Shown here piece by piece: positions 13,301-57,015 of a stretch of DNA of 64,000 nt. Position numbers and translations under genes: made by a program. The stretch covers positions 1 to 64,000 of IMG/VR virus record IMGVR_UViG_3300048580_000994, one strand, 5' to 3'. This DNA is from a virus. Every line of letters begins with the position of its first letter. Position 1 is the stretch's first letter. The notes beneath the pieces were generated by a model, which worked only from the letters and a program-made list of their open reading frames with translations, ran no database searches and was not told the origin of the DNA.

Positions 13301-13666
13301 ATGCGAAAAACAATTTTAATAATAGAAGATAATGATATAAACATGACATTATATACCTTGTTTTTGAGTAAAGCAGGTTATTCGGTTATTCAAAGCCCTA
13401 AAGGAAAAAATGGGTTGGATATGATCAAGGAATTTTTACCAGACTTAGTTCTTACAGATATTAATCTTCCTGATATATCTGGTATTGATATAATTAAAAA
13501 TATTAAAAGCGATTCAACGACCAATCATATACCAGTTGTGGCAATTTCTGCATTCAAAGATAAAGATGAAGAAGATGAGGTTAAAAATATCAGTGATGCA
13601 ACACTGAAAAAACCCACCACGAATGATGGGCTTTTAACAGTTGTTCGTGCATTTTTAACAGCATAA
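13301..13666 (+). CDS. stand-alone response-regulator receiver, DivK-like
   Basis: A 121-aa single receiver domain with no output domain. The acidic pair is E9/D10, the phospho-acceptor is D53 (LTDINLP), the switch Ser is S83 and the Lys is K104. D53 is also the phosphorylated residue of Caulobacter DivK. The blocks IIEDNDINM, IPVVAISAF and LKKP resemble DivK more closely than CheY. DivK-type receivers control the alphaproteobacterial cell cycle, so this may be a decoy or activator. Resemblance was judged by eye. Confidence 0.85.
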   Translation: MRKTILIIEDNDINMTLYTLFLSKAGYSVIQSPKGKNGLDMIKEFLPDLVLTDINLPDISGIDIIKNIKSDSTTNHIPVVAISAFKDKDEEDEVKNISDATLKKPTTNDGLLTVVRAFLTA

Positions 13667-30801: not shown

Positions 30802-30887
30802 GCGGGTAGCAGACATCTGGGGGTGTCACCGGTCTTCCAAACCGGCTACTGTAAAAGGTATTTTGGATTCGATTTCCACTACCCGCT
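30802..30887 (+). tRNA. tRNA-Gly(TCC), second
   Basis: GCGGGTA/TACCCGC acceptor; CCGGT-CTTCCAA-ACCGG; long variable loop. Confidence 0.88.
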
Positions 30888-41950: not shown

Positions 41951-42103
41951 AGGGCCGAATAAAATTGATTATCGGATAATAGAATTGTTAATGCAGTTTT
42001 TAGATGGTTCAAGCCCATCAATCAATCGCAAGATTGAAAAATTCAATTTTAAAACCTTGCCCTTTTGATTTTTTGTGATATGATGAATAAAAGGAGAATA
42101 ATA

Positions 42104-42337
42104 ATGGATGCAACATTAGACATACCACTTCAAGTTACAGTTCGTTTGGGTAAAACAAAAATGTCCATCAAACAACTTTTGAAAATGGGTAGGGGTGCTG
42201 TATTGGAATTGGATAATTTAGTCACAGACCCAATTGAACTATTAGTCAATGGAAAGGTTGTTGCATTGGGTGAAGTTGAAATTGTTGGTGATAATTATGG
42301 GATTAAGATAACTGAAGTTTTTGGGAAAACAGCTTGA
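42104..42337 (+). CDS. FliN-like flagellar switch (SpoA-domain) protein
   Basis: 77 aa covering essentially one SpoA domain. DIPLQVTVRLGKTKMSIKQL, then LELDNLVTDPIELLVNG, then GEVEIVGDNYGIKITEV match the conserved core of bacterial FliN throughout. FliN forms the base of the flagellar C-ring and binds CheY-P in many species. The N-terminal extension of host FliN is missing. A phage copy could poison the switch. RBS AAAGGAG. Confidence 0.88.
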   Translation: MDATLDIPLQVTVRLGKTKMSIKQLLKMGRGAVLELDNLVTDPIELLVNGKVVALGEVEIVGDNYGIKITEVFGKTA

Positions 42338-44880: not shown

Positions 44881-44953
44881 AACTGCACCATCTTATCCTT
44901 GACACCAACTAAATATCTTGCTAATATATCCTGATGACGTTAGAAAGGATTGT

Positions 44954-45070
44954 ATGATGATTATCACCAGTGGGGTCATTTTTTTGATTTGGCTTCTTAG
45001 CTTATTTTCCAGTAAAGCACCAAGTGGATTCATTTTCGTCATTTGGTTCTTTAGTCTTTTTTGTCTGTGA
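44954..45070 (+). CDS. small hydrophobic protein
   Basis: 38 aa, almost entirely two hydrophobic spans. RBS AGAAAGGA. Ends 5 nt before the lpxC ATG, so it is probably co-transcribed with lpxC. Confidence 0.6.
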   Translation: MMIITSGVIFLIWLLSLFSSKAPSGFIFVIWFFSLFCL

Positions 45071-45075
45071 ATCAA

Positions 45076-45903
45076 ATGAAACAAAAAACATTAACCAAAA
45101 CAATATCGTTCTCAGGTGTAGGACTTCACAATGGTAAACAGGTTAATGTTTTACTCTTACCAGCCCCACTAAACACCGGAATTATTTTTCAGCGAACAGA
45201 CGTTGGGGGAAATAATATCATCCCAGCCTTGTGGAACCTTGTCCACACAACCAACCTAAACACTTGTTTGAAAAATGACAACGACGTTACCATTTCCACA
45301 ATTGAACACTTGATGGCAGCATTATCAGCCTCTAACGTCACCAATTGTCATATCCAAGTCAACGGACCAGAAATTCCAATTTTGGATGGCTCTGCAGATA
45401 TTTTTTACCAGACAATCAAACCCGATACCACAGAACAAAAACTGAACCAAAAATCCATCAAGATTTTGAAACCAATAACCACCCAAACAGTGTCTTTGAT
45501 TCCGGCTGACGAATTTTCCATTGAACTTTTTATTGATTTCCCAGCCAAAATCATAGGGACACAATCATTCCACTATCGAGACAACTTCCCTGAAATCTCC
45601 CAAGCCAGAACCTTTGGGTTTGGGAACGAGATTGACTACCTTCGGAAAAATAACCTTGCCTTGGGTGGGAGTTTGGATAACGCTATCGTTGTGGCTAACG
45701 ATGGGGAAACGATTTTGAACGATGGTGGGCTGAAATACAATGATGAATTCGTCCGTCATAAAGTCATCGATGCTATCGGGGATTTGTATCTCGCTGGTTA
45801 CCCAATCATTGGTAAATTCATTGGGGTAGGTTCTGGACATTCAATGAATAACGCCCTATTGCGGGAACTTTTCAAAAACCAAGATTGTTGGGAGATGGTA
45901 TGA
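45076..45903 (+). CDS. lpxC: UDP-3-O-acyl-GlcNAc deacetylase
   Basis: A 275-aa LpxC, the committed step of lipid A synthesis: removal of acetate from UDP-3-O-acyl-GlcNAc. The catalytic set is complete: E77/H78 in STIEHL, H228 and D232 zinc ligands in RHKVIDAIGD, D236, and H255 in GSGHSMNN. GVGLHNGK and SLDNAIV motifs are also present. It lacks about 30 C-terminal residues of E. coli LpxC. The start aligns with bacterial LpxC. The stop overlaps the next ATG. Confidence 0.96.
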   Translation: MKQKTLTKTISFSGVGLHNGKQVNVLLLPAPLNTGIIFQRTDVGGNNIIPALWNLVHTTNLNTCLKNDNDVTISTIEHLMAALSASNVTNCHIQVNGPEIPILDGSADIFYQTIKPDTTEQKLNQKSIKILKPITTQTVSLIPADEFSIELFIDFPAKIIGTQSFHYRDNFPEISQARTFGFGNEIDYLRKNNLALGGSLDNAIVVANDGETILNDGGLKYNDEFVRHKVIDAIGDLYLAGYPIIGKFIGVGSGHSMNNALLRELFKNQDCWEMV

Positions 45904-46340
45904 AACCTGAAATAACATATTTTCCCAGTGGTCCAAAACATCAAGAAACTTGGTATTTGGATGATTATGACACTGTGCATCGTATTGGTGGACCTGCAAA
46001 TCAACAATGGTACACAAATGGGTTATTATTTAGCGAGGCATGGATGGAATATGGTTTGCTTCATCGTGTTGATGGACCTGCAATAAGATTTTGGTTTAGA
46101 AATGGGCAGTTGCGTTCGATTAGATGGGCTATCAATGGAAAAACACATCGTATTGGTGGTCCAGCATTTCAAACTTGGGATGAAAATTGGCAAAAACAAA
46201 AAGAACAATGGTGGGTGAATGACATTGAAAAAACCAATGAAATCCTTCAATGGATAGAAAAAGATAATATTGAGTTGGATGAAAATCACAGCATCGTCAA
46301 GAAGAACGATTTAATGATTTTTAAATTGAAATTTGGCTGA
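45900..46340 (+). CDS. repeat protein (HRxGGPA/W..NG type) with FKLKF tail
   Basis: 146 aa; three or four beta repeats with HRIGGPA, HRVDGPA and WYTNG/WFRNG units, then a helix and IFKLKFG. Translationally coupled to lpxC. Function unknown. Confidence 0.78.
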   Translation: MKPEITYFPSGPKHQETWYLDDYDTVHRIGGPANQQWYTNGLLFSEAWMEYGLLHRVDGPAIRFWFRNGQLRSIRWAINGKTHRIGGPAFQTWDENWQKQKEQWWVNDIEKTNEILQWIEKDNIELDENHSIVKKNDLMIFKLKFG

Positions 46341-51624: not shown

Positions 51625-51686
51625 CTTTATTTTTGTTGTAATTATTATTCATTTATGTTACAATGAATAATGAAGAGAGGTGTATT

Positions 51687-52145
51687 ATGTTACCTGTAAT
51701 AAAATGGGACGACCAATATAGTGTTGGTATTGATGCCATCGACAATGATCATCGAATGTTTTTTGAGATCACTGAAATGTTGAGTTGTATGGAAACATAT
51801 GAAGAGGTATTGGTGATTCGTTGTTTGTCTATGTTCAACGAATGTCTTCATGGACATTTTTTACGGGAAGAATTGGCGATGGAGAAAGCCAACCATGATA
51901 ATTATGCTGAACATAAGAGACAACATGACGCTTTTAAAGAAAAGATTGCAGATATAATGGATTCATATTATAGTGGAAATTTAAATGCTATTGTTGGTTT
52001 TCCACAATTGATTTGTGATTGGGCATTAACCCACATACCAAATAATGATTTATTATTCAAGGGTGCCATTTTACCAGAGCATGTTGACAATCGTTCCATT
52101 GCCGCATTAGCGATGGAAAGTTTTAAAAAATCGATAAAGGGATAG
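51687..52145 (+). CDS. bacteriohemerythrin
   Basis: A 152-aa hemerythrin four-helix bundle binding a di-iron site and O2. All ligands are present: H22 (NDHRMFFE), H57 and E61 (HGHFLREE), H76 and H80 (HKRQH), H116 and D121 (HIPNND). Start is the ATG after RBS GAGAGG, giving MLPVIKWDDQYSVGI as in bacterial homologues. Could buffer oxygen/iron or feed host chemotaxis signalling. Confidence 0.94.
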   Translation: MLPVIKWDDQYSVGIDAIDNDHRMFFEITEMLSCMETYEEVLVIRCLSMFNECLHGHFLREELAMEKANHDNYAEHKRQHDAFKEKIADIMDSYYSGNLNAIVGFPQLICDWALTHIPNNDLLFKGAILPEHVDNRSIAALAMESFKKSIKG

Positions 52146-55599: not shown

Positions 55600-57015
55600 A
55601 TGGATATTATTTTAAAAAAAGCCAGATTTATATCATTTTTTATTATTGCCAGTATAACGTTGGTAATAGTTATTAGTTTTTATTTCATGACCATGAATAA
55701 TATTGACCAAGATCGTTTGGTTAAGATGACTAATATTTATGGTCGAGGGGAAAGTGTTATAAAAGTATTAGATAGACATGTTCATAACTCAATCGAAGAT
55801 GTTTATTGGGCATTGCGAGTATATGAAAATAAATGGGTTGACACACCAGATGATGAATTTGTTGTTTGGGTTAGTAAGAATACTGTGAACACTTTTTATG
55901 CATCTAAGATAATAATCAATAGTGTTAGTGGTGTCTCTTATAGATATGAAGACAATAAAATAACCAAACAAAAAAGTGATAATAATTTTAATCAAAGTAG
56001 TATTATTGTTGGAACTAATTTGGTTATGGAAAATTCAAATGATGGGTTGGAAATAATTTTTAAATATACTATTAAGGGGAAGGGTGTTATTAATATTCAT
56101 GTACCACAAAATTATTTGGTTGATATTTTTTCAAATCTTAGGCATCATTGGGAAATTTTGATAATAGATGTTACAAATAATATATATTCTGATTTAGTTA
56201 ATGAAATTGATAAATCAATTTCTTCGTTTGATAAAAATAAAATATTAAATGATTATAAATGTAATACCAAACTGCTAATAAAAAATGAAAATGATGATTT
56301 TTCGTTTCTTGGTAATTGTTATAAATCTGTTTATTATAATTTATATTATGTGGTATTATATGATTATACTTATGAAATGTCTGGCTTTGTTGATAGAAGT
56401 AAGAAAACATTATCATCATTTTCATTGTTTGTTTTTATGATATTATTAATTGGTATAGCGTTATTAATAGTTTCTGATAAACAAATTAGAGTATATGTTG
56501 AGTTAAAACAAATGAAAGACGAGTTTGAGGAATTGTCGAGTATTGATGAATTAACTTCTGTTACCAATCGCAGGGCTGTTATGAAAAGGTTGGTTCAAGA
56601 AATGACCAGAATGTCTCGTCATGGTCGCCCACTATCCATTATGTCATTTGATATAGATTTTTTCAAAAAAATCAATGATACTTATGGGCATAATGTTGGA
56701 GATATAGTTTTGAAGAATTTGGTGATTGAGGTACAAAAATGCCTTCGTCAAACAGATTTGCTTGGTAGAATGGGTGGTGAAGAATTTTTGATATTGTTGG
56801 GCGATACCAAATTAGATGGTGCTACTATATTGGCTGAACGTATTCGTGAAACTATACAAAACATACAGATAGTTAAAGACATTAACATCACCATTAGTGT
56901 TGGTGTTGGTGAATTTAAAAAGGGAGAGATTACCAGTCAATTATTAGCACGTGTTGATTTGGCATTATATAGAGCTAAAAATGAGGGAAGAAATAAGGTT
57001 TGTATATCCATTTAA
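55600..57015 (+). CDS. membrane diguanylate cyclase (GGDEF)
   Basis: 471 aa. One membrane span at about 10-32, a periplasmic sensor-like region, a second span at about 277-297, then a GGDEF domain. The active site is GGEEF (392-396). The inhibitory I-site RQTD lies exactly five residues before it (383-386). Metal/substrate motif FDIDFFKKINDTYGH is intact. It should make c-di-GMP at the inner membrane and be product-inhibited. A truncated duplicate of its C-terminus lies at 57220-57342. Confidence 0.94.
   Translation: MDIILKKARFISFFIIASITLVIVISFYFMTMNNIDQDRLVKMTNIYGRGESVIKVLDRHVHNSIEDVYWALRVYENKWVDTPDDEFVVWVSKNTVNTFYASKIIINSVSGVSYRYEDNKITKQKSDNNFNQSSIIVGTNLVMENSNDGLEIIFKYTIKGKGVINIHVPQNYLVDIFSNLRHHWEILIIDVTNNIYSDLVNEIDKSISSFDKNKILNDYKCNTKLLIKNENDDFSFLGNCYKSVYYNLYYVVLYDYTYEMSGFVDRSKKTLSSFSLFVFMILLIGIALLIVSDKQIRVYVELKQMKDEFEELSSIDELTSVTNRRAVMKRLVQEMTRMSRHGRPLSIMSFDIDFFKKINDTYGHNVGDIVLKNLVIEVQKCLRQTDLLGRMGGEEFLILLGDTKLDGATILAERIRETIQNIQIVKDINITISVGVGEFKKGEITSQLLARVDLALYRAKNEGRNKVCISI

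What the first reader, a model, noticed from the sequence alone, without database searches (positions are those of the whole stretch)
45076..45903. Complete LpxC carried by a phage
All zinc and catalytic residues of the lipid A committing enzyme are present. LpxC level is tightly controlled in bacteria because excess or deficit is lethal. A phage copy lacking the C-terminal tail, which in E. coli carries the FtsH degradation signal (established), could be a stable, unregulated form that alters LPS during infection or supports envelope integrity.
Basis: partly seen in the sequence, partly recalled or inferred. Interest (0 to 1): 0.75.

Follow-up and report, generated by a model that had tools for sequence, protein, structure and literature searches.

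The report
Lipid A enzyme carried by phages
A large bacterial virus carries a complete, apparently working copy of LpxC, the enzyme that commits a bacterium to making its outer-membrane lipopolysaccharide; at least ten other phage lineages carry one too, usually without the tail nearly all bacterial versions have, so the outer membrane's supply line may be a recurrent phage target.

Summary
45076-45903 (+) encodes a full-length LpxC (275 aa): Pfam 298 bits, NCBIfam equivalog, AlphaFold2 pLDDT 96.7, TM 0.96 to solved LpxC. The contig is phage (T4-type topoisomerase pair, tail fibre, dCMP deaminase, about 40 tRNAs, many homing endonucleases). Every zinc and catalytic residue is present.

The protein stops where the C-terminal tail of bacterial LpxCs begins. 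But the FtsH degron is an enterobacterial feature, and this protein groups loosely with alphaproteobacterial LpxCs, which lack it; tail loss is therefore not evidence of escape from FtsH.

Beyond the finding: LpxC occurs in about a dozen further phage lineages (fragments of 15-453 kb, and Vibrio phages K566/K567), acquired at least three times. Catalytic residues persist, and one marine phage clade shows purifying selection (dN/dS about 0.1). Ten of 13 lineages are tailless or nearly so, against 6 of 148 bacteria. Five of 13, including the window, lost both auxiliary phosphate-binding lysines (K143, K262), a combination absent from 148 bacteria.

Best reading: an active deacetylase that supplements or deregulates lipid A synthesis during infection; an altered substrate remains open. 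PHROGs, BFVD and the literature held contain no phage LpxC.

The parts
45076..45903 (+). lpxC, 275-aa UDP-3-O-acyl-N-acetylglucosamine deacetylase without C-terminal tail
   Evidence: PF03331 298 bits; TIGR00325 equivalog; AF2 pLDDT 96.7, pTM 0.93; TM-score 0.96 to PDB LpxC 4fw3
45304..45309 (+). codons E77-H78 (general base and zinc ligand; E. coli E78, H79)
   Evidence: alignment
45610..45612 (+). codon T179 (E. coli T191)
   Evidence: alignment
45757..45783 (+). codons H228-K229...D232...D236 (zinc ligands H238 and D242, K239, D246 of E. coli)
   Evidence: alignment
45838..45840 (+). codon H255 (general acid; E. coli H265)
   Evidence: alignment
45829..45831 (+). codon G252, in place of the phosphate-site lysine K262 of E. 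coli (K/R in 115 of 118 proteobacterial and 30 of 30 acidobacterial LpxCs)
44954..45070 (+). candidate 38-aa hydrophobic (two-segment) ORF with an AAAGGA ribosome site at 44944-44949; its stop lies 5 bases before the lpxC ATG. lpxC has no ribosome site of its own, so translational coupling is likely (inference)
   Evidence: sequence, translation, upstream sequences of all ORFs
45900..46340 (+). 146-aa GPA/W-repeat protein whose start overlaps the lpxC stop (ATGA); no Pfam match; paralogue at contig 79096-79794 (-)

Best explanation
It is a phage-encoded LpxC: a zinc-dependent deacetylase that removes the N-acetyl group of UDP-3-O-acyl-GlcNAc, the committed step of lipid A synthesis. During infection the phage makes its own copy, probably translated by coupling to a small upstream membrane-peptide gene. 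Because it lacks the C-terminal tail that nearly all bacterial LpxCs have, it is expected not to depend on host signals that act through that tail. It would keep lipid A flux going, or raise it, while host gene expression is shut down, so that the envelope of a slowly killed, perhaps enlarging, cell stays intact until lysis. Shown: gene, fold, conserved catalytic residues, phage setting, repeated acquisition by phages, purifying selection in one phage clade, absence of the tail. Inferred: activity of this particular protein, its substrate, the effect on LPS and the benefit to the phage.
For: Family and equivalog matches. High-confidence model matching solved LpxC at TM 0.96, including the product-bound 4mdt at 0.95. 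All eight catalytic or zinc residues are kept here and in every other full-length phage LpxC found, apart from T191 (aligned to W) in Vibrio phage K566. dN/dS 0.10-0.13 between diverged members of the marine phage clade. At least 3 separate changes forced by well-supported branches, 4-6 in bootstrap trees, and one viral clade in none of 200. Tail at most 8 aa in 10 of 13 phage lineages against 6 of 148 bacteria (Fisher p 7e-8 on an earlier 9-lineage subset at a 5-aa cut-off, which ignores relatedness). Acyl-tunnel positions mostly bacterial-like in the window protein.
Against: Two conserved phosphate-site lysines (K143, K262) are lost in the window, a combination seen in none of 148 bacterial LpxCs, so affinity for the UDP-sugar may be reduced or altered. 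lpxC lacks its own Shine-Dalgarno site, so expression rests on the proposed coupling. The four phage contigs nearest by topoisomerase (mostly fragments) show no LpxC. No other lipid A gene was recognised in the window. The host is unknown.
Confidence: 0.55

Rival explanations
1. Same chemistry, different substrate: the phage enzymes deacetylate another nucleotide-sugar or acylated amino sugar (for example for a phage glycan or a modified LPS), having lost part of the UDP-diphosphate site.
For: Loss of both K143 and K262 in window, L021, L022, L201 and L204, and of one in seven more lineages, against 0 of 148 bacteria losing both. Phosphate-site roles of Lys143, Lys239, Lys262 and His265 are from PMC10254716. 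The lpxC phage of L019 also carries a PIG-L-type deacetylase and a nucleotide-sugar epimerase close by.
Against: K239 and H265 are invariant, K239 being the direct pyrophosphate contact; K143 contacts the pyrophosphate only through water (PMC13342928). Fold and acyl tunnel are conserved. The marine clade (L012) keeps both lysines.
Confidence: 0.2
2. The enzyme changes LPS amount or composition mainly to block adsorption of competing phages or reuse of the receptor (superinfection exclusion).
For: LPS is a common phage receptor (general knowledge). Vibrio phage K566 has next to its LpxC a gene annotated as PagP.
Against: LpxC acts upstream of all LPS structure and does not by itself change its chemistry. 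The PagP annotation has no Pfam match here.
Confidence: 0.1
3. A decoy: tailless LpxC binds host regulators (LapB/FtsH, or MurA in Pseudomonas) or substrate and thereby frees or starves the host pathway, with catalysis secondary.
For: LapB binds LpxC directly (PDB 8v24).
Against: Strict conservation of catalytic residues across diverged phage copies implies catalysis is selected.
Confidence: 0.07
4. A passenger or assembly artefact: recently captured host DNA, or a chimeric contig.
For: Higher GC3 (0.43 against a mean of 0.30) and unusual GC skew for this phage; no ribosome site of its own.
Against: No bacterial lpxC neighbours (ftsZ, secA). The downstream gene overlaps the lpxC stop and has a paralogue elsewhere on the contig. 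Codon usage is within the range of the phage's own genes, 7th lowest of 45. Best bacterial identity is only about 51-52%. LpxC recurs in other phages.
Confidence: 0.05

Closest known systems
Bacterial LpxC (UDP-3-O-acyl-N-acetylglucosamine deacetylase, EC 3.5.1.108; PF03331 / TIGR00325)
   Same: Full domain, fold, zinc ligands and catalytic residues; 42-43% identity and TM 0.96 to solved LpxC
   Different: In a phage; no C-terminal tail; K143 and K262 not kept; long branch, best bacterial identity about 51-52%
LpxC-like protein of Vibrio phages K566/K567 (255 kb; OZ196521, OZ196593)
   Same: Phage-borne, PF03331 140 bits, tail nearly absent, zinc ligands kept
   Different: 28% identity; annotated only as hypothetical; T191 not conserved; central region reduced
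Other IMG/VR phage LpxCs (L012 marine clade, L017, L019, L020, L021, L022, L026, L192, L204, L208)
   Same: Complete LpxC with catalytic residues, mostly tailless
   Different: About 32-42% identity; several separate origins; the marine clade keeps its tail and both lysines
Host-derived auxiliary metabolic genes of large T4-like phages
   Same: Host enzyme carried by a lytic-type phage, at a rate-controlling step
   Different: No phage gene for the committed step of lipid A synthesis was found in PHROGs, BFVD or the papers held

Membership tests
LpxC (PF03331 / TIGR00325) | Full-length profile match above curated cut-off | tested here: met
   298 bits against 27 and 278 against 187
LpxC (PF03331 / TIGR00325) | Zinc ligands HHD and catalytic E78, T191, K239, D246, H265 | tested here: met
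   All present
LpxC (PF03331 / TIGR00325) | Two-domain LpxC fold | tested here: met
   AF2 pLDDT 96.7; TM 0.96 to 4fw3
LpxC (PF03331 / TIGR00325) | Phosphate-site lysines K143, K239, K262 | tested here: inconclusive
   K239 kept; K143 and K262 lost, a pair of losses seen in none of 148 bacterial LpxCs
LpxC (PF03331 / TIGR00325) | Deacetylase activity on UDP-3-O-acyl-GlcNAc | not testable with these tools
   Needs an enzyme assay or complementation
FtsH-regulated enterobacterial LpxC | C-terminal degron LAXXXXXAVLA | tested here: not met
   Protein ends at the position of E. coli V285, 0 tail residues; degron described in PMC12444477
Phage auxiliary metabolic gene | Lies in a genuine phage genome | tested here: met
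   Topoisomerase II pair, tail fibre, dCMP deaminase, Prs, tRNA array; virus record. No terminase on this fragment
Phage auxiliary metabolic gene | Under selection for function in phages | tested here: met
   dN/dS 0.10-0.13 in the marine phage clade and conserved catalytic residues; not measurable for the window copy, which has no close relative

The most novel reading that the evidence does not exclude
Phages have repeatedly captured LpxC and remodelled it the same way, removing the C-terminal tail and weakening the nucleotide-phosphate site. The result would be a class of viral deacetylases, free of host control or with a changed substrate, that takes over the committed step of outer-membrane synthesis during infection.
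Probability: 0.25. Interest if true: 0.8.

Novelty: new variant of a known kind. Interest (0 to 1): 0.6.

Why it matters
LpxC is the control point of lipid A synthesis, and in E. coli too much or too little is lethal. A phage version would show that some large phages steer the host's outer membrane from the inside, and would offer natural LpxC variants without the tail for separating catalysis from regulation. LpxC is also an antibiotic target. A cultured system (Vibrio phages K566/K567) could make the question testable.

Tried and rejected
Single-sequence search of viral contigs found nothing; profile searches then found the phage LpxCs. Five of seven INPHARED records with LpxC (Salmonella AFYI01000001 and two Acinetobacter 'phage' records, one of which was opened, with ftsA-ftsZ-lpxC; Bacteroidota-like MT837229 and MT836264 with LpxC-FabZ fusions) look like bacterial DNA by gene order; only K566/K567 are accepted as phage. 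L191 groups within gammaproteobacterial LpxC and lies near an integrase gene: left out of the counts. L201 lies by curli genes: counted, but its phage nature is less sure. Recent direct donation from a sampled host: rejected, best identity about 51-52% in some 500 proteobacterial genomes. Treating tail loss as many independent events: rejected, only 2-4 independent pairs. PagP beside K566 LpxC: not confirmed by Pfam. A structural match in BFVD: none.

Full report
OBSERVATION. The ORF at 45076-45903 (+) encodes 275 aa from ATG to TGA. It is LpxC by curated family models (PF03331, 298 bits, profile 1-267 of 268; TIGR00325 equivalog, 278 bits against a cut-off of 187) and by end-to-end alignment with LpxC chains in the PDB. 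A 40-sequence AlphaFold2 model has mean pLDDT 96.7 and pTM 0.93 and superposes on solved LpxC with TM 0.96 (4fw3) and 0.95 (product-bound 4mdt).

SETTING. The window is part of an 82,429-base IMG/VR virus record. It carries T4-type topoisomerase II subunits (575 and 456 bits), a tail-fibre protein, dCMP deaminase, ribose-phosphate pyrophosphokinase and NUDIX genes, 40 tRNA genes in the window by ARAGORN (Rfam adds more) and many ORFs that look like HNH/GIY homing endonucleases (my reading of the translations). The nearest isolates by topoisomerase are large phages of Xanthomonas, Pseudomonas and Stenotrophomonas, with two uncultured phages over 630 kb among the best matches. No terminase was found on this fragment. 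The host is unknown.

GENE NEIGHBOURHOOD. The lpxC start has no Shine-Dalgarno site, whereas most plus-strand genes of this phage have one. A 38-codon hydrophobic ORF (44954-45070) with an AAAGGA site ends 5 bases before the lpxC ATG, and the next gene (45900-46340) overlaps the lpxC stop by ATGA. It is a repeat protein with a paralogue on the same contig (39% identity). This looks like a small translationally coupled unit; that is inference. lpxC has higher GC3 (0.43 against a mean of 0.30), and its codon usage is on the unusual side but within range (7th lowest of 45 genes).

ACTIVE SITE. In E. coli numbering, E78, H79, T191, H238, K239, D242, D246 and H265 are all present. They are invariant in 118 proteobacterial-set and 30 acidobacterial LpxCs and in every other full-length phage LpxC, except T191 in Vibrio phage K566. 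Acyl-tunnel residues are largely bacterial-like. Two phosphate-site lysines are not: K143 falls in a short deletion and K262 is glycine. None of the 118 lacks both, and all 30 acidobacterial ones have K/R at both. Reviews place Lys143, Lys239, Lys262 and His265 around the phosphates (PMC10254716), with K239 direct and K143 water-mediated (PMC13342928). A weaker or altered nucleotide site is therefore possible but not shown.

TAIL. The protein ends at the position of E. coli V285. Of the 118 bacterial LpxCs (nearly all Proteobacteria), 4 have 8 or fewer residues beyond that point (median 20), and of 30 acidobacterial ones 2. Ten of 13 phage lineages have 7 or fewer: window, L017, L019, L020, L021, L022, L192, L204, L208 and K566 (the L019 and L208 values shift by a few residues with the alignment). 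The marine clade and L201 keep a tail; L026 is intermediate. The Fisher p of 7e-8 was computed on an earlier 9-lineage subset at a 5-residue cut-off and ignores relatedness. On trees only 2-4 independent contrasts exist, too few for significance. The E. coli FtsH degron is a feature of enterobacteria; alphaproteobacterial LpxCs lack it and were Lon substrates when expressed in E. coli (PMC12444477).

OTHER PHAGE LpxCs. Profile scans of IMG/VR gave LpxC in many contigs. Phage nature is supported by terminase in L019 (194 kb), L022, L026 (453 kb) and K566, gp32 and cell-wall hydrolases in L012, endonuclease VII and ribonucleotide reductase in L021, RNA ligase in L020, a DNA helicase of phage type in L017 and rIIB in L026. 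L192, L204 and L208 were judged from gene content and the record class only. Vibrio phages K566/K567 have a diverged LpxC (28% identity; PF03331 140 bits) annotated as hypothetical. PHROGs has no LpxC family and BFVD no structural match, and the literature searches on this point found no report of a phage LpxC (PMC3877843 lists lpxC among virome genes in a study of cellular contamination). The library holds open-licence papers only.

EVOLUTION AND SELECTION. In a 72-sequence careful tree the viral LpxCs (14 rows, L191 included) need 5 changes, at least 3 forced by well-supported branches, and never form one clade in 200 bootstrap trees. The window copy lies among bacterial, mostly alphaproteobacterial LpxCs without strong support, on a long branch, best identity about 51-52%; no recent donor is evident. 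In the marine clade dN/dS is 0.10-0.13 between diverged members, so the gene is maintained for function there. For the window copy selection cannot be measured.

MECHANISM. Most likely the protein is an active LpxC that supplements lipid A synthesis in the infected cell, less dependent on tail-mediated host control. Shown: identity, fold, active site, phage context, recurrence, selection in one clade. Inferred: activity, substrate, stability and benefit. The main rival is an altered substrate, because of the lysine losses.

VERDICT. Real, functional-looking and apparently undescribed as a phage gene. The enzyme family itself is well known, so it is a new variant (phage-borne, tailless, altered phosphate site) rather than a new kind.

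Noticed in passing
window 42080-42337 (+): Stand-alone FliN C-terminal (flagellar switch) domain, PF01052 83 bits, 3 kb upstream of lpxC. The only hits in the phage collection are short or unannotated records and one record whose gene order (pomA, fliM) looks bacterial; none of eight other lpxC phage records searched has it. A phage FliN could act on the host motor.
   Followed up: partly
window 55600-57015 (+), 13301-13666 (+), 51663-52145 (+); contig 74488-74922: Signalling and sensing genes in the same phage: membrane GGDEF protein (147 bits), CheY-like receiver, hemerythrin-like protein and BLUF blue-light domain. With FliN this suggests interference with c-di-GMP and motility.
   Followed up: no
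window 15940-51625: About 40 tRNA genes interspersed with likely homing endonucleases; Rfam also calls a tRNA-Sec at 30802-30886 just over threshold.
   Followed up: no
L215 76-1593: N-terminal half of LpxC in frame with a DNA-methyltransferase-like protein, lacking the second half of the LpxC active site: a decayed or fused phage LpxC.
   Followed up: no
L019 3790-5336, 8868-9272, 12186-13529: The 194-kb lpxC phage also carries a PIG-L-type deacetylase, a nucleotide-sugar epimerase, a response regulator directly after lpxC, and a TctA transporter.
   Followed up: partly
L026 5330-6631 and L204 2778-3941: In L026 rIIB lies about 1.4 kb before lpxC; in L204 a similar protein lies immediately before lpxC, suggesting a shared neighbourhood.
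   Followed up: partly
L201 222-4924: lpxC next to CsgG, curlin-repeat and FecR genes in a contig classed as viral; phage nature unclear.
   Followed up: partly
L002 9535-9984 (Vibrio phage K566): Gene annotated PagP beside the phage LpxC has no Pfam match even at E 10, so the annotation is doubtful.
   Followed up: partly
INPHARED records AFYI01000001, CAKLQH020000013, MT837229, MT836264, MW495066: Records in the phage collection that by gene content look like bacterial DNA.
   Followed up: partly
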